Assembly (NCBI GenBank): GCA_025454725.1
Contig: JALONW010000008.1
Location: 1-39,576 of the forward strand
DNA length: 39,576 nucleotides
Direction of reading: 5' to 3'
DNA from: Anaerolineae bacterium
GTDB taxonomy: Bacteria > Chloroflexota > Anaerolineae > Aggregatilineales > Phototrophicaceae
Below are positions 20,283 to 39,020 of this stretch, piece by piece. Each line of letters opens with the position of its first letter. The stretch's first letter is position 1. Both the position numbers and the translations under genes were made by a program. Below the pieces are notes generated by a model. That model was not told the DNA's origin. It saw only the letters and a list, made by a program, of their open reading frames with translations, and did no database searches.

Positions 20283-21737
20283 CTAGTCACCAGAGGGCTG
20301 GGTCGCGCCGGTGGGGATACTCTTGGCACTGCCGTCGATCTCCTCAGGCACAGGCAGGATGTCCGGCCAAATCGACGCACCGTGTTCGTACATATCGATA
20401 CCGATGGTGTCGGCGATCTTGTTGACACGCAGGCGTCCCATGGCCTTCAGCGCACCGAACATGATCGAACCTGTGACGACACACCAGATGATCGTAGACA
20501 CCGAGCCGATGAACTGCGTGACCAAGAGATCGATACCGCCGCCGGGGATGAGCAGGCCGCCCCATGTCGCGTTGGCAGGGTTAGCAGCGAAGCCGATCAG
20601 TGAAGGCTCCGCGAACAGGCCGACTGCGAGGATCCCCCACACACCGCAGGCGAGGTGGACTGAAGATGCGCCAACTGCGTCGTCAATCTTCAAACGCTCC
20701 AACAGGTCACCCCACAGGATGACGATGATGCCGCCCACAGCGCCCATGATGATGGCGGCCAATGGGCTGACAAAGGCGCAGCCAGCGGTAACGGCCACCA
20801 GACCAGCCAACGACCCGTTCAGCGTGACAGCGAGGTCCCACTTACCACTGCGGAAATATTGGAAGAACATGGCCGACAGCAGACCGACGCCACCACCCAT
20901 GGTCGTGTTGAGGACGACAATACCTACGGTACCCGCCACACCGACAATGCCGAGGGTTGAACCGGGGTTGAAACCGTACCAACCCACCCACAAAATCAAC
21001 GTACCAATCAGGGCAAGGCCGAGGTTGTGCGGCGTAACCATCTTGCCCCACACCTTGTCCTTACGCGGCCCAAGGAAGATTGCGCCGAGCAGAGCGATGA
21101 CACCACCAACCGTGTGAACAACGTTGCTGCCCGCGAAGTCGATGAAGCCGCGCTGGAACAGCCAGCCGCCACCCCAGACCCAGTGGACAACTATGGGGTA
21201 GATGAAAACGGTGACGATGACGGTGTAGATCAGGTTGCCGACGAAATCCGTGCGCTCGGCCATCGCACCGGTGGTGATGGTGCTGGCCGTCGCGGCAAAC
21301 GCAAACTGGAAGAAGAACATGGTCAGGACGCTGATGTTGCCATAGAAGATGGTGTCAGCCAGCTCCACACCGGGCATAAACAAGCTCGTGCCAAACAGAC
21401 CACTGCCGTTGTCTACGCCAAAGGCTAGACCGAAGCCGATGAACCACCAGCACAACGCCCCGACACCCGCTTCGATGAAGTTCTCTAGCAGCGCGTTGAC
21501 CGCACCGCGCTGACTGATCATGCCTGTCTCAAGGATGGCGAATCCCAACTGCATGAAAAACACCAAGAAGCCCGTAATCATCACCCACGAGGTGTCGAGA
21601 CCGATCTTGAGTGACGCAAAGTCCTCTGCGGTGGGTGCGTCTTGTGCAAAACTGATGCTTGTCCCAAAAGCCGCCAAAATCAGCGTGGCGATTGCCATCA
21701 CAAACAGACGGCGAATGAGTGATGAACGGTTACGCAT
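20283..21737 (-). CDS. amt: Ammonium transporter (Amt), copy 1
   Basis: DTSWVMITGFLVFFMQLGFAILETGMI; SNVVHTVGGVIALLGAIFLGPR; LILWVGWYGFNPGSTL; signal peptide. Start placed at ATG 21737. Confidence 0.95.
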   Translation of the reverse strand: MRNRSSLIRRLFVMAIATLILAAFGTSISFAQDAPTAEDFASLKIGLDTSWVMITGFLVFFMQLGFAILETGMISQRGAVNALLENFIEAGVGALCWWFIGFGLAFGVDNGSGLFGTSLFMPGVELADTIFYGNISVLTMFFFQFAFAATASTITTGAMAERTDFVGNLIYTVIVTVFIYPIVVHWVWGGGWLFQRGFIDFAGSNVVHTVGGVIALLGAIFLGPRKDKVWGKMVTPHNLGLALIGTLILWVGWYGFNPGSTLGIVGVAGTVGIVVLNTTMGGGVGLLSAMFFQYFRSGKWDLAVTLNGSLAGLVAVTAGCAFVSPLAAIIMGAVGGIIVILWGDLLERLKIDDAVGASSVHLACGVWGILAVGLFAEPSLIGFAANPANATWGGLLIPGGGIDLLVTQFIGSVSTIIWCVVTGSIMFGALKAMGRLRVNKIADTIGIDMYEHGASIWPDILPVPEEIDGSAKSIPTGATQPSGD

Positions 21738-21764
21738 AGGGTATCTCCTACGGTTCTGGGGGAA

Positions 21765-21843
21765 TTGCCAAGCCCTTTGCTTGACTGCCCACAGTCTAAA
21801 CCAGCGCAACCTTATACATTAGCGGCGCATAAAATGAACTTTG
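21765..21843 (-). promoter_or_regulatory. Conserved leader of amt copy 1
   Basis: Shares CATTAGCGGCGCATAAAATGAACTTTG and AAGCCCTTTGCTTGACTGC(C/T)CACAGTCTAAACCAGC with the copy 2 leader. Confidence 0.6.
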
Positions 21844-22003
21844 ATAGTTTATATTGTCTATTTTTCACAAAAAACAGCGCCGTCCATCGTTAAAATCAAA
21901 CTGTAAGGATGTCATTGGTGAACTTGTGGCAGTTGCGACGTACATTTATACAAGACCACTAGGCAAACTATCTGTACACAGCATATAGTGACTGAAAATT
22001 GAC

Positions 22004-22036
22004 CGAAAAAAAGCCCGGTATGCTATACCGGGCCTT
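22004..22036 (-). terminator. Intrinsic terminator downstream of amt copy 2
   Basis: Minus strand GCCCGGTAT-agc-ATACCGGGC followed by TTTTTTT. Confidence 0.9.
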
Positions 22037-22070
22037 CAGTCCTAAACGAGTGTGAAACCTGTGGTTCGGG

Positions 22071-23525
22071 CTAGTCGCCAGCGGGCTGGGTCGCGCCGGC
22101 AGGAATGCTCTTGGCGCTGCCGTCGATCTCCTCCGGCAGGGGGGCGACATCCGGCCAAATCGACGCACCGTGTTCGTACACATCGATGCCCACAGTGTCC
22201 GCAATCTTGTTGACGCGGAGGCGGCCAATCGCCTTCAGGCCAAAGAACAGCACTGCCGAGGTTGCGCCGACCCACAGGGTGGTCGCGGCCACGCCGACGA
22301 ACTGGATGCCGAGCATCGACAGGCCGCCGCCGTAGAATAGGCCGAGGTTAACCGTCTCGGTGCCGGGGACAGCCAGCATCAGGCCGGGCGCGCCGAACAG
22401 ACCAATGGCGAGCGTACCCCACATACCGCAGGCACCGTGAACCGCGAATGCACCCACCGCGTCATCAATCTTGAGACTCTCGACCAGATCAGCGGCCAAG
22501 ACGACCACTACGCCAGCGACAGCGCCGATGGCGAGCGCACCGATGGGTTCGACGAAAGCGCAGCCAGCCGTGACACCGACCAGACCAGCCAGCGAACCGT
22601 TCAGGCTCATGGCGAAGTCAAACTTGTGGGTGCGGAAGTAGACAAAGGCCAAGGTGCTGAGGGTGCCGATGGCGGCGGCCAGCGTGGTGTTGAGTGCAAT
22701 CAGGGCGGCGAGGTCGGCGTAGCCGATGATACCGAGGGTTGAACCGGGGTTGAAGCCGTACCAACCGAACCACAGGATCATTGCACCCAGCGCTGCGAGG
22801 CCGAGGTTGTGCGGCTTGGGCGGTGCGCCCCACTTGCGACCCGGACGCGGCCCCATGATAGCAGCGCCAACCAATGCGCACAGACCGCCGACATAGTGGA
22901 CAAGCGTGCTGCCTGCGAAGTCATGGAAGCCGGTCTGGAACAGCCAACCACCGCCCCAGTGCCAGTGAACGACCACCGGGTAAATCAGCGCGCCGATGGC
23001 AACAGACTTGAGCTGGTCGCCGATGAAGTCAGTACGCTCAGCCAACGCACCAGTGGTGATGGTAGCGGCAGTAGCGGCAAAAGCAAATTGGAAGAAGAAG
23101 AAGACCAACACCGGTAGGTTGCCGTAGAAGATTTCGCCCATGCTGCTGCTGTTGAGCGCAAACATTGACGTACCGAACAGCCCATTCGAGCTGGCGCCAA
23201 AGGCGATACCGAAGCCGACGAACCAGAACACGATGCCCGTAACGGTCGCGTCGATGAAGTTGACTGCCAGCGCGTTGACTGCGCCTGTCTGGCGGACGAG
23301 GCCGGTCTCCAGCATGGCGAAACCCGCCTGCATGAAGAAAACAAGGAAGGCGGCAATCATGACCCATGTGCTGTCGATGGCGATATTGATGGGGGTAAGG
23401 TCGTCAGCGCTCAGGGCGGCGGGAGCATCTTGTGCAAAACTGATACTGGTCCCGAAGGCCGCCAAAATCAGCGTGCCGATAGCCATCGCAATGAGACGGC
23501 GGATGAGTGAGGAACGGGTACGCAT
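22071..23525 (-). CDS. amt: Ammonium transporter (Amt), copy 2
   Basis: DSTWVMIAAFLVFFMQAGFAMLETGLV; STLVHYVGGLCALVGAAIMGPRPG; same signal peptide and C-terminal tail as copy 1. Start placed at ATG 23525. Confidence 0.95.
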   Translation of the reverse strand: MRTRSSLIRRLIAMAIGTLILAAFGTSISFAQDAPAALSADDLTPINIAIDSTWVMIAAFLVFFMQAGFAMLETGLVRQTGAVNALAVNFIDATVTGIVFWFVGFGIAFGASSNGLFGTSMFALNSSSMGEIFYGNLPVLVFFFFQFAFAATAATITTGALAERTDFIGDQLKSVAIGALIYPVVVHWHWGGGWLFQTGFHDFAGSTLVHYVGGLCALVGAAIMGPRPGRKWGAPPKPHNLGLAALGAMILWFGWYGFNPGSTLGIIGYADLAALIALNTTLAAAIGTLSTLAFVYFRTHKFDFAMSLNGSLAGLVGVTAGCAFVEPIGALAIGAVAGVVVVLAADLVESLKIDDAVGAFAVHGACGMWGTLAIGLFGAPGLMLAVPGTETVNLGLFYGGGLSMLGIQFVGVAATTLWVGATSAVLFFGLKAIGRLRVNKIADTVGIDVYEHGASIWPDVAPLPEEIDGSAKSIPAGATQPAGD

Positions 23526-23556
23526 AGGGTTTATCTCCTCCGGTTTTTTGGGGGAA

Positions 23557-23635
23557 CTGCCAAGCCCTTTGCTTGACTGCTCACAGTCTAAACCAGCACC
23601 AACCCATTCATTAGCGGCGCATAAAATGAACTTTG
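23557..23635 (-). promoter_or_regulatory. Conserved leader of amt copy 2
   Basis: Same conserved blocks at near-identical spacing. Confidence 0.6.
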
Positions 23636-23918
23636 GTGAATTCTTTTGTCTACTTTTCACAAAAAAATTCCCCAATCGTCCGGCCTGTTGAAAACAGACA
23701 GACGGCGCTTGTAAAAGATGTGCGAAATGCGTAGACAAAAGCGCACAAAAAATACAACCCACTTCCTGTCACCTGTAATTTTTGGCGCAAACCCAGCGTC
23801 TAATGATTGACCCAAACGGCCAACATCCCCCGCGCCACCCCCATAACCCACCCTGACGCAGCGGCGCGGTCGTGCCGTACAATCCCCTGCATCGCTATCC
23901 GATTGTGCAAACCCACCC

Positions 23919-27662: not shown

Positions 27663-30600
27663 CTAGAATGGCGCAGACGTCGCGGTCGGGCCGAGCGGCT
27701 GCGGTGAGGTGATGGGGTCAAACGGCAGCGGTGTGAACAGCGGCGGCAGCGTGTCGATGGGCTGCGGCGTCGGGCTGGGCGTCGCCGTCGGCGTGGGCGT
27801 CGGGTTATTGACCACCACGTCTACGCTGCGACGGACATAGCCGCCGTTGCTGCTGAAGGCGGTCAGGCGCAGGGTGTAGCCGCCGCTGGTGACCGCGTTG
27901 GTGTCCCATGTGCCGAGGACGCCGCCCGGCGTGGTCTGCTGGCTGCTGGTCGGGAAACCGGGCAGCGGGGTGAAATTCTGCGTCCCCTGCGGCGCGATTT
28001 CCAACGTGTAGCGGTTGAAATCGGCGGGCGCGGACACCTGACCGGTAATCTGCACCTGACCAATCAGCGACTGCCCGGCGGTCGGTGAGTTAATAACCAC
28101 GGTCGGGAGCTGGGTATTCTGGTCGCATTCGCTGGTCGGCAGCGCGGCGATGTTCTGGCCGATGCCCAGTTGATTGGCGAGATTGCGGCCAGCGGTCGAT
28201 TGCAGATACGCGACGATGAACTGGTCGGCGTTGTTCAGATAGACGCGCTGCTCGGTGTCCTCGGTGCTGGGGCAGAACTGGTTGGCGCGCTGACCGTTCC
28301 ATGTGTTGACCGCCGCCGTGACCACTAGACCCAACGTGGACGGGGGTGCTTGGCGGGTCTGCGCGAACAGCTCGCTACGTCGCGTCCCGGCACACTCCGG
28401 CCCGAAGGCCGTCCCGGTCAGGCTACAAACGTCATTACGGGTCAGACCACCGGGGTCGGGGAAGATGGGGATATTGTTCGAGACGGCAATCTGCCGCATC
28501 ATCTGGTTCCACGCGGGCGCGGCCACACTCAAGCCGGTCTGATTCGGGATGGGGACATCGGCGTTGGGCGTGCCGAGCCACACCCCGATGGACACATCTG
28601 CCGTCACGCCGATGGTCCAGAAGTTGGTGCGGGCGGCGTTCTGACCGGCCACCGTCGCCACGAAGCCCTGATTCGGGCGCTCTGGAATGACCAGCGCCGA
28701 GTTGCGCGGGATGAGCTGGGTGTTGCGAGCGAGGTCATCACTGAGCATGTTCGCCATCAGGAAAGCCGTCTGCGGGCTGATGGCATCTTGAGCCGGGCGG
28801 CGCAGGATTTCCGGCAGCGGAACCTCGATGCCGTTGGAGTCGGTGATGGTCTCGATGACATACCAATGGCGGTGGGTGCCGCCGCTGGCAAAGGTCGTGT
28901 AGGCCGAAATCAAGTCAATCGGGCGGACGGGCGTCGCACCCAGCGCCGTCTCTACGCTGAAGATGCTGTCGGGCAGGAACGAAATGCCCATGCGGTCGGC
29001 CATTGTGCGGAAGGCGCTCTCGCCAATGTCGGTGTAGGTGCGGGCGGCGGCTACTGCGAACTGATTCGCCAGCGCCTCGCGCACCGAGACCGGGCCGTAG
29101 AAGCGCCCGTCGAGGTTGTTGGGCGCGACTGGCGGCGTGCCGCTCTGGCCAGACTGGAAGTTGGTCGGCACGTCCCAGACCATGGTCGCGGGTGTGTAGT
29201 ACTCGTTGAACTCGAACGAGCCGTTGCCATTCCTATCGACGCCTTGCAGCGCGGGCGCATACACCAGCGGCGTGATGGTCGTCCCCGGCTGGCGGTACTC
29301 GCGCAGATAGTCGCGCTGACCCTGTAGGTCAAGGTTATCGAAATCCGGGCTGCCGACATAAGCCAAAACCGCGCCGGTGCGCGAGTTAAGGTAGGAGGTC
29401 GCGCCGGTGGTAATGCCCGTCCCGCTGAGTTCGGTCAGGCGGCGGTTGAGCAGGGTTTGAGCTGCGTCCTGCGCGGCAGTGTTGAGCGTTGTGCGGACGC
29501 GGAAGCCACGGGTGTACAGTTCTTGGCCGTACACCGCCTCCAACTGCTGGCGGACGAGCTGAACAAAGTGCGGGTACTCGGTCGTAACTTGGCGCGGGCG
29601 GAACGGCAGAAGTTCAACCGTGCCGAGCGCACGCACGAACTGCGGGTTGGTCTCGCTGATGTCGTTGGCGGTGATGCACACTTGACCGCGCCCCGGAATA
29701 CTCAGGCAGCCGACCTCGGCCATGCGGCGCGCCACGCTGAGGATAGGGTTGCGGATATTGCGGTTGCTCACCGGGTCAACCGTGTTGGGGTCTTCCATGA
29801 TGGCCGCCAACAACGCGGCTTCTGGGATATTCAATTCCGAGGCCGGTTTGCCGAGGTAGAACTGTGAGGCCGCCTCGACGCCGTAGGTGTTGTTGCCGAA
29901 TGCGAACTCGTTCAGGAACAGCGCGAGGATAAATTCCTTGCTATAGCGCCGCCCCAACTCCCCCGCCACGACAATCAGGTCGGCATCGCTGGCGGAAGTA
30001 TTGCCGCCGCCCAGCACGAGGCTTTCAGCGACCAGTTGGGTGATGGTCTTATTGACTGGGACGGTCGTACCACTGAAACTCTCGATATACGCGCCGATGG
30101 TCGTGCCAGTATCCCAACCGGGGTCACCGAAAAAGGTCGGGTTGCGGGTCGAGACCACCGCGTGGATGAGGTACTGGCTGATGGTGTGCGGTCGCCCGCG
30201 TCGGCAAGGCGGGCAATCTCGCGCCCAGCGCTGTCCTGAATCACCACGGTCTGGAATTCCGGCTCGTAGTTCGCCAGCGCATCGAGCTGCGCGTCGTACT
30301 GTTCGACGATGCCGTTATACCATCCGTTGGCCGCCCATAAGCCGCCAGCACCGACCAATAACATCAGCCCAAGTACACCGACCACCGCCAGCACAATGTT
30401 GCGCGTGGTGTTGCGGCGGTACATCTGGTCGGCCTGCTCAGAAAGCTCGCCTTCCATCTCTTCATCGAGGTCGGGCGGCAGTGATTCATCGACTGCGGCG
30501 GGGATGCCCGGCTCAAAACTACCATAGCCGACCGAAGCGCTGGGGAGGGTCGCGCCCGCCAGTGTTGCCCCGGCGACCGTCGGCTGTGAGCCGGGGTCAG

Positions 30601-31741
30601 TCATGTCGAGCTGCTCACGGAAGGCCGCGCCGCCGACCACGGTTTGACCCATGTCGTTGGTGGAGACTTGGTTGGGCAGCGGCATGTACTCGATACTGCC
30701 CATCGGGACGGTGGCCGCCCCGCCCAACCCACCCGATGACTCGGCGGGGCCAGTGTTGAGCAGCGGCAGACCGTCCGCACCCATCTGCTGGGTGGCGAGG
30801 TACTGCTCCAACCAAATCGGGTTGGCCGGTTCCCAGCCCATGCCGTCAGCAGTCGAGCGCAGCCACGACGTGTCGTACAGCGACATGCGCCAGTAATGGC
30901 CGTCGTCGGTCTGGATGATAAGCTGATTGGCGTTGATTTCGTTCTCGGCCTGTTCCGGCGTAATCTGGCCGGACTGCACCATCATACGGAGCTGCGCCAT
31001 CTGCTGCTGGATACTGAAAAAGCGCTGGCCCATGACCTCATTCGCCATGCGCGCCGACTCAACGGCGGCGGGCGTCGGCCCGGCGGGCGGCTCCGATGAA
31101 ACCGGCGCGCCCCCGGCCAACTGCGCCATGCGGCGGCGAGCAATCTCGGCGGGGTCGTCCTCTGCTGACGCGACCGCGGTATCTTCCTCGGTGGGCGGCG
31201 TGGTGGTCGCCTCATCATCCGGCGCACCGGCCAACATCCCCAGCGCCAGCATCTCGTTACCGAGGCCGTTGCGCGGGTCGGGGTCTTCGTCGTCGTCATC
31301 GCTCATCATCGAGAGCGCGTTCAGCACATCTTCCGGCGATTCTGGAACATCTTCGGCCACCGGGTCGCCGTTGATGCGCAGCGGCGCGTCCGTGACATCG
31401 CTGGGCAGGTCGGCCAGCAGGTCTTCAGGCGAGAGGAACTTCTCGACCTCCTCCGCCGTGGCAGGAACGGCCTCCGGAGGGAGTGCCTGCTCTAAATCCT
31501 CATCCTCCTCATCGACCGGGGCCATGATGATGGTCTCGTCGGTCGGCTTGAGCAGGGTATCTTCGCTGCGCGGGCGGTGCCAACCGCCGGGCAGGTCGGG
31601 TAGGTCGGTCAGACCTTCGGGCAGGGCTTTGACCTTGTAGCCACGCCGCGATTCCCCGGACTCGGTGGGGACGGCTGTGATGCCCTGAGCCGGGTCGGGG
31701 GTATTCCAACCGCCTTGTTTGGGTGGTGGGGTATCGGCCAT
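27663..31741 (-). CDS. Class A PBP-like protein (GT51-like + transpeptidase-like) with long acidic N-terminal tail; degenerate catalytic motifs; reading frame broken near 30180-30195
   Basis: ORF 29975..31741 (tail, TM, start of GT-like domain) continues in another frame as ORF 27663..30158: AGREIARLADAGDRT/ISQYLIHAVVSTRNPTFFGDPGWD...TITQLVAESL...RRYSKEFILALFLNEFAFGNNTYGVEAASQFYLGK...RQPGTTITPLVYAPAL... Confidence 0.8.
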
Positions 31742-31846: not shown

Positions 31847-34800
31847 CTACCCCTTCGGCTGGCTGTCGAGGCGAGTTGCCATCACCCGGTGGATGACCTC
31901 CTCAAGGCTGAGGGTGCGGCCCCGGCTGGCAGCCTGTTCCAGCGCCCACGCGCTCATGTTCAGGCGAATTTTGTCCAATGCGTGTTGGGCGCGGGTTTGG
32001 TCGGCGGCGAACGCCCGCGCATCACCCAGCACCAGCGAGGTCAGTTCGGCGGTGCGCTCCGGCGGGTTAAGCGCCGCTGTCACATCGGCATAGGCGGCAG
32101 CCAGCCCCAGCACCAGCGACGGATGGCGCAGGTCACGTAGGTGTTGGGCGGCGGCACGCAGTGCCTCTAGGCCGCCGGTTTCGTCGTTGAGTGCGAGGCG
32201 CGCATCGCACAGCCCAACCAGCGCCAACGTGTGCCAGCGGTCGAGCTGGAAGTCCTGCCATTCGGCCTCAGCCTGCCCTTTGCGCCCGCCCATCTCGCCC
32301 AGCGCCTGAGTCAGCAGTTCGACTGCGCCTTCTGGGTCTTGGGTGTTCAGTGCAGACAAGCCCAGCCCTACCCGCGCCGCTGATTGTTGGTTGGGGTTAT
32401 CGACCGCCTTGTCCTGCACCCGCCCAAACAGCGGCCTCGCTGCGTCCGCCTGACCGTTGAGCAGCAGCGCCAGCGCCTCGCCCAGCGTGCAGTACAGCAT
32501 CAGGTCATTGAGATGGGCGCGCTGGGCCGATTCACGGCTCAGGCGGTAGCGGACGGTGGCCTCGTCATACCGTCCCAGCGCGAGGGAGGCGTCGGCGGCG
32601 TAGCGGGCGTTGGTGGCGGCCCAGTCCTCGCTGCCCAAATCCTGCGCCGAGTGAAGGGTTTCTAGAGCGAGCTGTTGGGCGGGGAGGTAGTTGGCCGCCC
32701 GCAGCTCAATCTGGGCTTGGACGGTGTGCGGCCAAAGCAGGCGGTAGGCGCTCCCGCTGCGCTCGATAAGCGCTAGTGCCTCTTTGACGGCGGTGCGGGC
32801 GTCGTCGTAGGCGCGGGCGCGCAGCACGGCGGACGCCCAGTTAATCTGCGCCGAGGCCATGCCCCACGTGTTGCCGAGGTCGCGGTAGGCATTGCGCGCG
32901 TCGAACAGCAGGCGGCGGGCATCCTCAATCTGACCGGCCAGTGTCGCCACCGTGCCAAGGTTCATCACCGAGATGGCCGCGCCGAAGCGGTCACCCAACG
33001 CCCGCTGGATGTCGATGGCCTCGGTGTGGCACAGGCGCGCCCTCGGCAGGTCACGGTCAGCAATGTTGGTGCGCCGCCAGCACGCCTGCCCCAAGCCCAT
33101 CAGCGCAAGGCTGAGTCCGTGCCGGTCACCGATTTGGCGGTAGAGCGCGCCGGAATACTCCAAGATATGGCGCGCCTCAACCGGCGAACGGTAGTACATC
33201 TCAACGTATCCCTCGACCAACAGCAACAGCGCCTCCAATTCTGGCGCGCTGGCCGGGGAGGGGGTAAGCTGCCGCGCCTCAGCGATGGAGCGTTCGGCAT
33301 CGCGCTGTTCACCGAAGAACACCGACAGGCGGGCGTACCAAGCCAACGCCCGTGCCAACACAGCATTGCGTTCTGGGCTAGGCGATAGGCCGCGCAGCAC
33401 CTCAATGACCGGCTCGGCGAAAGTCTGCGACTCGATGCGGTTGGAGCGGAACTCGGCATACAGCCCGTAAGCGTGGACGGCGCGCACCAGCGCTACGGTG
33501 CGCTTGTATTGCACGGCGTACTGAACCGCCGCCTGTAAATTTTCGCCCTCAGCGGCTTGGGTGCGGAACGCCTCTAGCTGGCCACGCCCCTCAAAGGCTG
33601 TGCGGCGTGCGGCCAACTGGTTGAGGTAGAAATCGCTGTGCGCGAGTCGGACGGCCTCGGCCAAGCCCATCTCGTCCAGCTTCTCGGCGGCATATTGACG
33701 GATTATCTCGTGCAGGCTGAACGACCCGGCCTCTGGGTCACGCCGCAGGAGCGACTTGCTCGCCAGTGCCAGCAGTGAGCGCAGGCTGGTCCCGGCCACT
33801 GCCTGCGCCGCGTCGCGGGTGAAACCACCGTGGAACACCGCGATGCGCGCCAGCGTGTCACGCTCATCATCGTTAAGCAGCTTCCATGAATAATTGAAGG
33901 TGGCGCGCAGGCTGCGCTGGCGCTCTGGTACATCGCGCCCAGTCGTCTCCAAAAAGTCGGGGTCGCGCTGGATTTCAATGGCAATTTCGGTTGGTGTGAG
34001 TGCCTCAACCCAGCCCGCCGCCAGCAGGATGCCCAGTGGTACGCCCTCGACATAGCGGCAGATGGAGATGATGGCCGCGAGGTCTTCATCGGTCAGCTCA
34101 TAGCTGGGACGGGCGCGGCGCGCACCCTGCTCGAACAGTTGGATGGCGCTGTAGCGGCGCGGGATGTTCGAGTCCTCGTCGGGGATTTCCAGCGGCGCGA
34201 GGCTGTAGAGGTGTTCGCCCTGCACGTCGAGTTTTTCGCGGGTGGTCGCCAACACCTTGAGCTGGGGCGCGGCGCGCAGCAGGTCGGCCACCACGGTCGC
34301 CCCGGCCAGCACATGCTCGAAGTTGTCAATCACCAACAGCATGGCTTTGGCATGAAGGTATTCCAAAAGCTGCTGGCGGATGTCCGAGTCGGGGACGAAC
34401 GCCAGCCCAATCGAGTCGGCGATAGCCGTGACCACGCCTTCCGGCGTCGAAAGCGGGGCCAGCGCGACAAAGTACACGCCATCGGGGTAGTAAGGCACGC
34501 AGCGCTCGGCCACTTCCAGCGCGAGGCGGGTCTTGCCCATGCCGCCGGGTGCGACCAGCGTGACGAGGCGAACCGAAGGTGTTTCCAACAGTTCGATGAC
34601 CGCCTGTGCCTCCTCCGCCCGCCCAATGAAGGCGGTCGGCTGCGCCGGGAGGTTGTGTTTCGGCTCAAAAATGGCCACCTCGGAAGTCGAGGTCGAAGTA
34701 CTGGGGTTAACCGGCTGGCTGGGCGGGCGGGTGTTGGCCGCCATCGCGATGGTCTCTAGCTGTGCGCCGACCAAGCGCGCCGTGGCCGGGCGGCGCTGCG

Positions 34801-35578
34801 GTTCCTTGTTCAGCATTTTGTGGATGAGGTCATCCATCGCCTCTGGCACGTCGTTTCGGAAGGTCGAAAGCGGCGGCGGCTCGGCCCCGAAGATGTTGGA
34901 AAGGGTCTCGGTCAGGCGCTCAGACTGGAACGGGTGGCGGCCTGCCAGCATGGTGTACATTACCAGCCCCAGCGACCAGATGTCGGCGCGCTCGTCGGCA
35001 GATGAACCGCTCAGGACTTCCGGCGCAGCCCATTCGACCGTGCCGCCGGGCATCGCGTCACCGACCGTCAGGCGCTCGCGGTTCTTGAGCAGCGCCGTCC
35101 CAAAATCGGTCAGCTTGGGCGTCCCCGATGACATCACCAAAATGTTGCTGGGCTTTAAGTCGCGGTGAACGATGCGGAGGTGATGGGCGCGGGCGAGCGC
35201 GTCCACGATTTCAATCGCCAAGCCCAGCGCCCGGTTATACGGCAGCGCGCCATAGCCCTCAATCATCTTGGCGAGGCTGCCGCCGTCCACGTATTCCAGC
35301 ACAAGGTGGTAAATACCCGCCGTCTCGAAGGTGTCGAGCAGCTTGACGATGTTGGGATGGTCGAGCTGGCGCAGCGCCTCGCCCTCGCGGATGACGCGGG
35401 CGCGCAGCGAGGGGTCGGTGGTCAACGCTTCGGGCAAGAGGTGCTTGACCGCGACAATCTGGCCGGTCTGGAGGTCGGTGGCCTTAAATACAGCACCCAT
35501 CCCGCCCCGTGCAATGAGGCTTTCAAGGCGGTAACGGTCATGCAGAATTTTGTTTGGATTGGTCGAATCGCTGGACAT
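31847..35578 (-). CDS. Ser/Thr protein kinase - STAND (NB-ARC-like) NTPase - TPR protein
   Basis: Kinase: LIARGGMGAVFKA, VAVKHL, HRDLKPSNIL, DFG, APE. NTPase: GGMGKTRLAL, MLLVIDNFEHVL, ATTREKL, GVPLGI. C-terminal TPR-like helices. Confidence 0.93.
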   Translation of the reverse strand: MSSDSTNPNKILHDRYRLESLIARGGMGAVFKATDLQTGQIVAVKHLLPEALTTDPSLRARVIREGEALRQLDHPNIVKLLDTFETAGIYHLVLEYVDGGSLAKMIEGYGALPYNRALGLAIEIVDALARAHHLRIVHRDLKPSNILVMSSGTPKLTDFGTALLKNRERLTVGDAMPGGTVEWAAPEVLSGSSADERADIWSLGLVMYTMLAGRHPFQSERLTETLSNIFGAEPPPLSTFRNDVPEAMDDLIHKMLNKEPQRRPATARLVGAQLETIAMAANTRPPSQPVNPSTSTSTSEVAIFEPKHNLPAQPTAFIGRAEEAQAVIELLETPSVRLVTLVAPGGMGKTRLALEVAERCVPYYPDGVYFVALAPLSTPEGVVTAIADSIGLAFVPDSDIRQQLLEYLHAKAMLLVIDNFEHVLAGATVVADLLRAAPQLKVLATTREKLDVQGEHLYSLAPLEIPDEDSNIPRRYSAIQLFEQGARRARPSYELTDEDLAAIISICRYVEGVPLGILLAAGWVEALTPTEIAIEIQRDPDFLETTGRDVPERQRSLRATFNYSWKLLNDDERDTLARIAVFHGGFTRDAAQAVAGTSLRSLLALASKSLLRRDPEAGSFSLHEIIRQYAAEKLDEMGLAEAVRLAHSDFYLNQLAARRTAFEGRGQLEAFRTQAAEGENLQAAVQYAVQYKRTVALVRAVHAYGLYAEFRSNRIESQTFAEPVIEVLRGLSPSPERNAVLARALAWYARLSVFFGEQRDAERSIAEARQLTPSPASAPELEALLLLVEGYVEMYYRSPVEARHILEYSGALYRQIGDRHGLSLALMGLGQACWRRTNIADRDLPRARLCHTEAIDIQRALGDRFGAAISVMNLGTVATLAGQIEDARRLLFDARNAYRDLGNTWGMASAQINWASAVLRARAYDDARTAVKEALALIERSGSAYRLLWPHTVQAQIELRAANYLPAQQLALETLHSAQDLGSEDWAATNARYAADASLALGRYDEATVRYRLSRESAQRAHLNDLMLYCTLGEALALLLNGQADAARPLFGRVQDKAVDNPNQQSAARVGLGLSALNTQDPEGAVELLTQALGEMGGRKGQAEAEWQDFQLDRWHTLALVGLCDARLALNDETGGLEALRAAAQHLRDLRHPSLVLGLAAAYADVTAALNPPERTAELTSLVLGDARAFAADQTRAQHALDKIRLNMSAWALEQAASRGRTLSLEEVIHRVMATRLDSQPKG

Positions 35579-35833: not shown

Positions 35834-38800
35834 ATGACCACCAACCCATCGCTTAAACTTCTGGCAGAGCGCTTCCGTATGGTCGAGGCCATTGGGCAGG
35901 GGAGCATGGGCGTGGTCTACCGTGGCCTCGACATCGCCATCGGCCAGCCGGTCGCCATCAAACACCTGCACCCCGAACTCATCCGCGCCGACCCGGACAA
36001 CCTGCGCCGCTTCGAGCGCGAGGTCGAGGCGCTGGGGCGGCTCAACCACCCCAACATCGTCAACCTGCACGCCAACCTCCGCGACGGTCAGGACTATTAC
36101 CTCGTGCTGGAATACCTTGAGGGCGGCGACCTGAGCGCGCTGGTGAAGCGGTCTGGCCGCCTGAGCGTCTCGCGCACCCTGCGGCTGGGCATCGAGCTGG
36201 CCGACGCACTGACCCGCGCCCACCACCTCGGCGTCGTCCACCGGGCGCTGTCGTCGGTCAACATCATGCTGGCCGGGGACGGCACGCCCAAGCTAACCGA
36301 TTTCGGCGTCGCTCGGCTGGACACGCACAAGCACCGCGCCGCCACTGGCAGGCCGCTGGGCGCGCCGGACTACCTCTCACCGGAGGCGCTGCAAGGGCTG
36401 GAATTGGACGCCCGCGCCGACCTGTGGGCGCTGGGCGTGGTCTTGTTCGAGCTGTTGGCCGGGCGGACACCGTTCAGCGCGGGGAATATCGCCACCATCC
36501 TGACCAACATCGCCACCCAGCCGCCGCAGGACCTCGAACTGCTCTGTCCAGCGGCCCCGCCCGCGCTGGTAGACCTGATTTACCGCCTGCTGACCAAAGA
36601 CCGCGAGGTGCGGGTGTCGTCGGCGCGGCGGGCGGGCGCAGAGATGGAACAAATTTTGACCGGGATTGAAGCTGGGATGAATACGCCCCTCCCACAGGCG
36701 GCGGGCGGCCTCGACCGCTTCCGCACGCCCACGCCGCTGATGTCGGTCGCCAACCACAACTTGCCCGCTCAGGCCACCCCATTCATCGGACGCGAACGCG
36801 AGCTGAACGAGCTGAAACGGCTCATCCAAGACCCCAATGTCCGCTTAATCACGGTCATGGGGACGGGCGGCATCGGGAAGACGCGGCTGGCGCTGGCCTG
36901 CGCGCACCGGGTGGTCGGCTCATTCGTGGACGGGATTTTCTTCGTCCCGCTTGCGCCGCTGTCGTCCGCCGATGACCTCGTACAGACGCTCGGCCATACA
37001 CTGAACATGGACTTTGCGCAGGACCTTGCGCCCAAGACCCAACTGCTGGACTACCTGCGCGGGCGCGCCCTGTTTCTGGTGATGGACAATTGGGACCACC
37101 TGCTGGACGGGCTGCCGCTGCTGGCTGAAATCCTTCAGACCGCGCCACGGGTGCAGGTCTTGGCGACCTCCCGCGTCAAGCTCAACCTTCAGGGCGAGAC
37201 CATTTTCGCCATTGATGGGCTGGACTACCCGGACACTGCCAGCGAACATGGCGCACAGGACCACAGCGCCGTCGGTCTGTTCGCACAGGCCGCCCGCCGC
37301 GCCAAACCCGGCTTCGAGCTGACGCCCGACTCACTCCCGGATGTCGTCACCATTACCCAAATGTTGGAAGGGATGCCGCTGGGGATTGAGCTGGCCGCTG
37401 CATGGACAGCCACCATGACCCCGCGTGACATCGTGCGTGAGATGCGCGCCAATCTCGACTTTTTGGGCGCGGATAGCGGCGACAGCCCCGACGGACACCC
37501 TCACAGCCTACGCGCCGTATTCGAGTCATCATGGCGCTTGCTCAGTAACGATGAGCGCGAGGTGTTCGTGCGGATTGCAGTCTTCCGGGGGCGCTTCACT
37601 CGGTCGGCGGGGCAAGCCGTCTCCGGCGCAAGCATCCGCCAACTGATGGGGCTGGCGAACAAGTCGCTGCTGCGGCGCGACACTGACAGCGGAATCTACC
37701 ACATCCACGAGGTCAGCCGCCAATTTGCCGAGGAGAAGCTCACCCGTGCGCGACGCCCACGCCCGCTTCTACCTCAAGGAATTGGCCGACGTGCGGCGCG
37801 ACCTTGAAGGGCGGCGGCAGCTAGAGGTCTTGGACGAAATCGAGGCCGACCTAGAGAACATCCGCGCTGGTTGGCGCTGGGCGTCACAGCGCGGCCTACA
37901 TGATGACCTGCGCGACGGCATGTATACGTTGTGTCTGTATTTCCTGCTGCGCGGTGAACTGTCCGCCGGGGTGGAATGCCTGACTGACACAGCGGCGGCA
38001 CTGCAAACCCTGCCGCCCACGCCCAGCCGCGACTCCGCGCTTGGAGCGTCTCTGCTGTGGCAGGCGGCATTAACCATCTTGTCGGGACGCGAGGCGCGCA
38101 GTGCGCTTCCGGTCTTGGCGGCGGCGCAGCCCCTTATCGCGGCCAGCGGCGACCCGTTCCACCGAGCGCTGATGCGCTTCATCGCTGCCTACGGCCACCT
38201 GACCACTGGCGACATCGCGCAAGCGCGGGAGCGCTTCGCCGAGAGCCGCGACCTCTACACCGCCATTGGCGAAAACTATCAGGTCGCCGCTGTTTACACC
38301 AACTGGGCGCGCACCTATTGGTACCGCCTGCCACCCGGCGAGGCCGACCTCGCTCGCGCCCAGACCCTGCTCACCGAGGCGTTGGCGGCGCTGGGCGACG
38401 AGCCGGGATTGTATCTCTACGCCTATATCTTGATGAACCAATCGATGGTCGAGTCGATGCTGGGCAGCCCGCAGGCCGAGGCCTCCGCCCGTGAGGCGCT
38501 CTCGATGTACCGGCGGCTGCGGAATATGTTCGGCGTCACGTCCACGCTCAACAGCCTCGCCATCATCACCATGCAGGCTGGCCGGCTGGACGACGCCCGC
38601 CAATACGCCGCCGAAAACGTCCGTGTCCACCGACATTTGGGTGGAGCGAGTGGGTTGGTCGGCGCACTGTTGGGACAGGCGAGGGTCGAGATTGCGGCGG
38701 GCGATTACATCCGCGCCCTCAGCCTTGTCTCGCAGGCGGCGCACCTGACCCGTAGCAGCGACACCAGCACCCGCCATAAGCTGGACGTGCTGCTCCTGCG

Positions 38801-39020
38801 CGCCGAGGTCGAGGCTGCGCTGGGCGGGGTTGACCTCGCCTCTCGGCTGTTGGCCTATGTCGGTCAGACCCCGCAGGCCGGGTCACAACAGCGGGCGCAG
38901 GCGGGTGCGTTGACCGACCAACTGCGCGTATGGCTCTCGCCCGGAGCACTGCAAGAGGCCGCCAGCCACGCCGCCGCCGCCTCGCTGGACGAGATGGTCG
39001 CACTGGCTTCGGCCAACTGA
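35834..39020 (+). CDS. Pseudokinase-like - STAND NTPase - TPR protein; reading frame broken near 37743
   Basis: ORF 35834..37807 (AIGQGSMGVVYRG, VAIKHL, HRALSSVNIM, DFG, GTGGIGKTRLAL, FLVMDNWDHLL) continues as ORF 37725..39020 (VRDAHARFYLKEL...TPR), matching the paralog's ...AEKLDEMGLAEAVRLAHSDFYLNQL. Confidence 0.88.

What the first reader, a model, noticed from the sequence alone, without database searches (positions are those of the whole stretch)
27663..30200. Doubly degenerate class A PBP: GT and TP catalytic motifs both lost
Aligning by eye to class A PBPs: GT51 EDxxFxxHxG becomes STRNPTFFGDPG (catalytic Glu to Arg); GGSTITQQ becomes VNKTITQL; transpeptidase SxxK in RQPGSSFKP becomes RQPGTTITP (Ser to Thr, Lys to Thr; bases 29268-29285); SxN in ALARSLN becomes ALANQFA; KTGT becomes GQNA. 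Fold signatures (RRYSKEFILALFLNEFAFGNNTYGVEAA, LVYAPAL, NFWTIGVTADVSIGVWLG) remain over about 800 codons without stops. That suggests a selected pseudoenzyme, for example a cell-wall scaffold or sensor, rather than decay.
Basis: partly seen in the sequence, partly recalled or inferred. Interest (0 to 1): 0.78.

Follow-up and report, generated by a model that had tools for sequence, protein, structure and literature searches.

The report
Catalytically dead class A penicillin-binding protein
In one group of Chloroflexota bacteria a large cell-wall synthase has repeatedly lost both of its catalytic sites while the rest of the protein stayed under selection, so it has probably become a non-enzymatic cell-wall protein; in the window itself the gene is also split by a small deletion that may be real or an assembly error.

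Summary
The minus-strand gene at 27663-30158 is a class A PBP homolog (PF00912 92 bits, PF00905 34 bits). Both GT51 glutamates (R, L), the transpeptidase SxxK (T..T), SxN (Q.A) and KTG (VAG) are gone. Its predicted fold is still that of a class A PBP (pLDDT 92). Relatives encode it as one ORF of about 1,200-1,500 codons.

Both other species of the genus share all the losses (53-77% identity), with dN/dS about 0.05. Other conserved columns are kept (75/90), catalytic ones are not (6/21). The tree needs at least 8 changes of transpeptidase state; orthologs in other families of the order are intact in 39 of 40. No copy has a dead glycosyltransferase with an intact transpeptidase, so the transpeptidase apparently dies first.

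Best reading: a selected pseudo-PBP with a scaffold or regulatory role (role inferred). The window copy may be recently broken or an assembly artefact; a second gene on the contig is also frameshifted. A separate paralog with a dead transpeptidase is conserved family-wide.

The parts
27663..30158 (-). 3' part of the class A PBP-like gene: most of the GT51-like domain, TP-like domain, C-terminal extension and Ig-like tail
29975..31741 (-). 5' part of the same gene; in frame from 31741 down to the junction at 30188: cytoplasmic region, membrane helix, start of GT51. The rest of this ORF is out of frame
30187..30188 (-). junction of a 16-bp deletion relative to OLB13 and Prado089; shifts the reading frame
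30144..30146 (-). GT motif I catalytic Glu position, here Arg (R13)
30033..30059 (-). GT motif II, PVNKTITQL instead of SGASTITQQ
29976..29978 (-). GT motif III Glu position, here Leu (L69)
29271..29282 (-). TP SxxK position, here TTIT (T301, T304)
29055..29063 (-). TP SxN position, here QFA
28641..28652 (-). TP KTGT position, here VAGQ
30326..30400 (-). membrane-spanning helix (NIVLAVVGVLGLMLLVGAGGLWAAN)
   Evidence: read from the sequence
30785..31048 (-). cytoplasmic module conserved in orthologs (helix, helix, three strands, helix; pLDDT 94.6; no PDB match)
31847..35578 (-). Ser/Thr kinase-AAA-TPR protein upstream on the same strand, 105 bases between the ORFs; functional link not shown

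Best explanation
The gene descends from an active bifunctional class A PBP with a long cytoplasmic N-terminus that is found across this order of Chloroflexota. In the genus of strain OLB13 both catalytic sites were lost and the protein was kept as a pseudoenzyme: a membrane-anchored dead synthase. Shown: the losses, their sharing by three species, the retained predicted fold, purifying selection, repeated independent loss in the family, and the nesting of GT loss inside TP loss. Inferred: it works by binding, as a scaffold or competitive/allosteric partner of the active synthases (C144 and C436 class A PBPs, SEDS and class B PBPs in the same genome), steered from the cytoplasm by its N-terminal region and perhaps by Ser/Thr phosphorylation. 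In the window's genome the gene is split by a 16-bp deletion; either this lineage has just broken it or the assembly is wrong.
For: Motif losses in all three genus members. 75/90 conserved non-catalytic columns kept against 6/21 catalytic (Fisher p = 2e-6). dN/dS 0.05 for window-Prado089 and about 0.09 for two other pairs of dead copies, against 0.086 for an active pair and 0.03 for the intact paralog C436. No decay signature on the window branch by codon position. At least 8 changes of TP state and 6 of the motif I Glu; one clade of dead copies rejected, p-AU 6e-27. Long open frames through the other dead copies. AF2 model pLDDT 91.6, best Foldseek matches all class A PBPs. Own genome has intact class A PBPs and SEDS proteins. 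PP2C phosphatase close upstream and Ser/Thr kinase divergent in many orthologs, which recalls the PknB-phosphorylated cytoplasmic tail of mycobacterial PonA1 (PMC4483258).
Against: The window copy is frameshifted. At least one sampled, 94% complete family genome (G003) shows no ortholog above the paralog level, so the gene can be dispensable. dS is near saturation for the window pair, so its omega is rough. PP2C/kinase synteny is not kept in the window or in OLB13. No interaction or phenotype data exist.
Confidence: 0.62

Rival explanations
1. Redundant paralog in slow decline: catalytic sites drift away because active paralogs cover the work, and the gene is eventually lost; the window's deletion is a late stage.
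For: 16-bp frameshifting deletion; no ortholog above paralog level in G003; many independent losses concentrated in one family; the window-Prado089 pair has dN 0.19 against 0.08 for the intact paralog C436.
Against: dN/dS as low in dead pairs as in active ones; long open frames in the other dead copies; focused loss at catalytic columns; losses shared across species only 53-77% identical.
Confidence: 0.22
2. The split in the window is an assembly or consensus error, and the gene is an intact pseudo-PBP in the living organism. This concerns the window copy only and is compatible with the best explanation.
For: A second gene in the same window (kinase-AAA-TPR, 35834-39020) is also frameshifted; no decay by codon position on the window branch.
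Against: A 16-bp deletion is an unusual short-read error; the reads are not available.
Confidence: 0.5
3. Altered catalysis: a Thr nucleophile or a different hydrolase activity replaces the original reactions.
For: The window copy has Thr at the Ser position.
Against: The position is Ser in Prado089 and Gly in OLB13, the Lys is lost in all three, and no common replacement set is seen across dead lineages.
Confidence: 0.04
4. Beta-lactam or peptidoglycan sensor of the BlaR1/MecR1 type that works by acylation.
For: Long cytoplasmic region joined through a membrane helix to a PBP-like outer domain.
Against: Acylation sensors need the SxxK Ser and Lys (general knowledge); the Lys is absent in all three genus members and the Ser in two.
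Confidence: 0.04

Closest known systems
Bifunctional class A PBPs, PBP1A family (TIGR02074; PF00912 + PF00905; E. coli PBP1b, A. baumannii PBP1a structures)
   Same: Domain order, membrane anchor, predicted fold, non-catalytic conserved columns
   Different: Both active sites lost; NCBIfam score 276 against a cut-off of 509; about 500-residue cytoplasmic N-terminus and Ig-like tail
Mycobacterial PonA1 (PMC4483258)
   Same: Class A PBP with a long cytoplasmic tail; Ser/Thr kinase (PknB) control
   Different: PonA1 is catalytically active; the kinase link here rests on neighbouring genes in relatives only
Bacillus subtilis PBP 2B with a catalytic-site mutation (PMC5656894)
   Same: Shows that a PBP can have a structural role in the wall machinery independent of catalysis
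   Different: Class B PBP, naturally active; inactive only by laboratory mutation
Own-genome paralog G000:C328 and its family-wide orthologs
   Same: Class A PBP homolog without SxxK, SxN and KTG
   Different: Separate paralog; keeps both GT glutamates; lost its transpeptidase motifs family-wide rather than recurrently

Membership tests
Class A PBP (bifunctional synthase) | GT51 domain followed by TP domain | tested here: met
Class A PBP (bifunctional synthase) | N-terminal membrane anchor | tested here: met
   Hydrophobic helix in the 5' half, 30326-30400; in one frame with GT/TP in the orthologs
Class A PBP (bifunctional synthase) | Catalytic Glu residues of GT51 (motifs I and III) | tested here: not met
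   R13 and L69
Class A PBP (bifunctional synthase) | SxxK, SxN and KTG of the transpeptidase | tested here: not met
   TTIT, QFA, VAG
Class A PBP (bifunctional synthase) | Curated NCBIfam cut-off for the PBP1A family | tested here: not met
   276 against 508.75 bits; a full-length ortholog with intact motifs also scores below it (444)
Pseudoenzyme | Enzyme fold kept, catalytic residues lost | tested here: met
Pseudoenzyme | Maintained by selection in the lineage | tested here: met
   for the genus; the window copy itself is frameshifted
Pseudoenzyme | No residual activity, and a non-catalytic function | not testable with these tools
   Needs Bocillin and lipid II assays, and partner mapping

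The most novel reading that the evidence does not exclude
A recurrent evolutionary route in one Chloroflexota family turns class A PBPs into pseudo-synthases (transpeptidase first, then glycosyltransferase) that act as phospho-regulated scaffolds or inhibitors of the active wall synthases through a cytoplasmic module without a match among solved structures.
Probability: 0.3. Interest if true: 0.78.

Novelty: new variant of a known kind. Interest (0 to 1): 0.55.

Why it matters
Laboratory mutants show that PBPs can have structural roles without catalysis. A natural PBP that lost both activities, repeatedly and under selection, would let that role be studied in isolation and would mean that genome counts of class A PBPs overstate wall-synthesis capacity. 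I found no report of such a protein in the papers that could be searched.

Tried and rejected
Simple local decay was tested against the genus members and rejected as the sole explanation. Misalignment was checked with about 100 homologs and with profile alignment to solved PBPs; no alternative catalytic residues appear. Conserved operon structure in the window was tested and not found. A fold match for the cytoplasmic module was sought in the PDB and not found (best E 0.47). Pfam gave at best weak SHOCT-like hits for that module in other members. A sigma-70 promoter scan upstream of 31741 found nothing. Searches of the held papers for natural dead class A PBPs found none; subscription journals are mostly missing from that library.

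Full report
What is there. The minus-strand ORF at 27663-30158 has no internal stops and matches PF00912 (91.9 bits) and PF00905 (34.4 bits), both over the curated cut-offs. Against solved structures its best sequence matches are class A PBPs. An AlphaFold2 model of the core (690 residues, 50 sequences) has mean pLDDT 91.6, lower in the GT region around residues 21-70. The listed Foldseek matches are class A PBPs.

The gene is longer than the finding says. ORF 29975-31741 overlaps it in another frame. It begins with a long acidic, low-complexity region, carries a membrane helix (30326-30400) and reads in frame into the start of GT51 up to 30188. Alignment with two species of the same genus shows 16 bases missing in the window at 30187/30188. 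Those species are OLB13 (G013, L077) and Prado089 (G031, L109 and L078); their identities follow from matching contig coordinates and lengths. OLB13 encodes the protein as one frame of 1,410 codons; complete family orthologs have about 1,170-1,530. Record titles place the relatives in Chloroflexota, some of them in Aggregatilineales.

Motifs. On alignments of about 100 homologs the window copy has R for the motif I Glu, L for the motif III Glu, PVNKTITQL for motif II, TTIT for SxxK, QFA for SxN and VAGQ for KTGT. OLB13 and Prado089 have R and L at the same GT positions, GAIA and SAIA at SxxK, QLA at SxN, and VAAT and VAGQ at KTGT. None of the three has the catalytic Lys, and only Prado089 keeps the Ser.

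Selection. Among 69 active copies, 111 columns conserved at 95% or more were sorted into 21 catalytic and 90 others (three more columns, next to catalytic sites, were left out). The window copy keeps 75 of 90 others and 6 of 21 catalytic ones (Fisher p = 2e-6). The contrast is circular for the SxxK columns, which defined the active set, but not for the GT columns. Pairwise codon models give omega 0.05 for window-Prado089 (dS about 3.9, near saturation), 0.090 and 0.095 for two less saturated pairs of dead copies, and 0.086 for an active pair. The intact paralog C436 gives 0.03 for the same two species. Changes on the window branch by codon position (78/45/154) resemble those on the Prado089 branch (66/54/117), so there is no sign of long neutral drift.

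Recurrence. On a tree built without the motif columns, dead copies fall in several places among active ones. The fewest changes of TP state are 8, and 6 for the motif I Glu; one clade of dead copies is rejected. These counts do not fix direction, but the outgroups are intact. Among the 61 family genomes searched, I count 15 in which the main copy is dead at the transpeptidase site. In other families of the order 39 of 40 orthologs are intact. Among the 99 tree sequences, 80 are intact at both sites, 4 have a dead TP with both GT Glu present, 15 are dead at both and none has a dead GT with an intact TP. This suggests that the transpeptidase is lost first.

Context. The genome also has two class A PBPs with intact motifs (C144, C436), three further TP-domain proteins without a GT51 match (class B by inference) and three SEDS matches, so wall synthesis need not depend on this protein. 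In 15 orthologous loci a PP2C phosphatase lies nearby, in 14 of them upstream on the same strand, and a Ser/Thr kinase is divergent in 11. The window and OLB13 do not keep that arrangement; the window has a kinase-AAA-TPR gene upstream. The cytoplasmic part holds a conserved 88-residue module, predicted with pLDDT 94.6 and without a PDB match.

Interpretation. The simplest account of shared loss, low omega, focused loss and retained fold is a pseudoenzyme maintained for a binding role. Precedents are the catalysis-independent role of B. subtilis PBP 2B (PMC5656894) and the kinase-controlled cytoplasmic tail of PonA1 (PMC4483258). The binding role is inferred, not shown. For the window's own copy the deletion leaves two readings, recent breakage or assembly error. 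A second frameshifted gene at 35834-39020 makes error more plausible without settling it.

Limits. Tree support comes from a quick tree without a mixture model, and the program warned of long branches. 'Dead' is defined by residues only. No biochemistry is available.

Noticed in passing
G000:C328:1-1842 (L003); orthologs L166-L180: A second class A PBP paralog lacks SxxK, SxN and KTG in all 16 sequences examined, yet keeps both GT glutamates. It has a clear ortholog in most of the 31 family genomes searched, so it is an older, family-wide PBP with a dead transpeptidase.
   Followed up: partly
window 35834-39020: A second kinase-AAA-TPR gene is split by a frameshift near 37741-37746 (ORFs 35834-37807 and 37725-39020).
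   Followed up: partly
window 30785-31048; orthologs in alignment A3: Cytoplasmic 88-residue module with conserved Trp residues, confidently predicted, no PDB match and only weak SHOCT-like Pfam hits.
   Followed up: partly
L082:3926-6263, L107:4172-5386, L149:5696-6817: PP2C phosphatase and/or Ser/Thr kinase genes next to the PBP ortholog in many family genomes.
   Followed up: partly
window 20283-23762: Two adjacent ammonium transporter genes on the same strand.
   Followed up: no
G000 genome-wide: 48 matches to the window's kinase-AAA-TPR protein in its own genome, a large expansion of kinase and STAND-like proteins.
   Followed up: no
L104 and L098: Two genomes carry both an intact and a TP-dead copy of the same gene (L080/L104 and L106/L098), apparently an early stage after duplication.
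   Followed up: no
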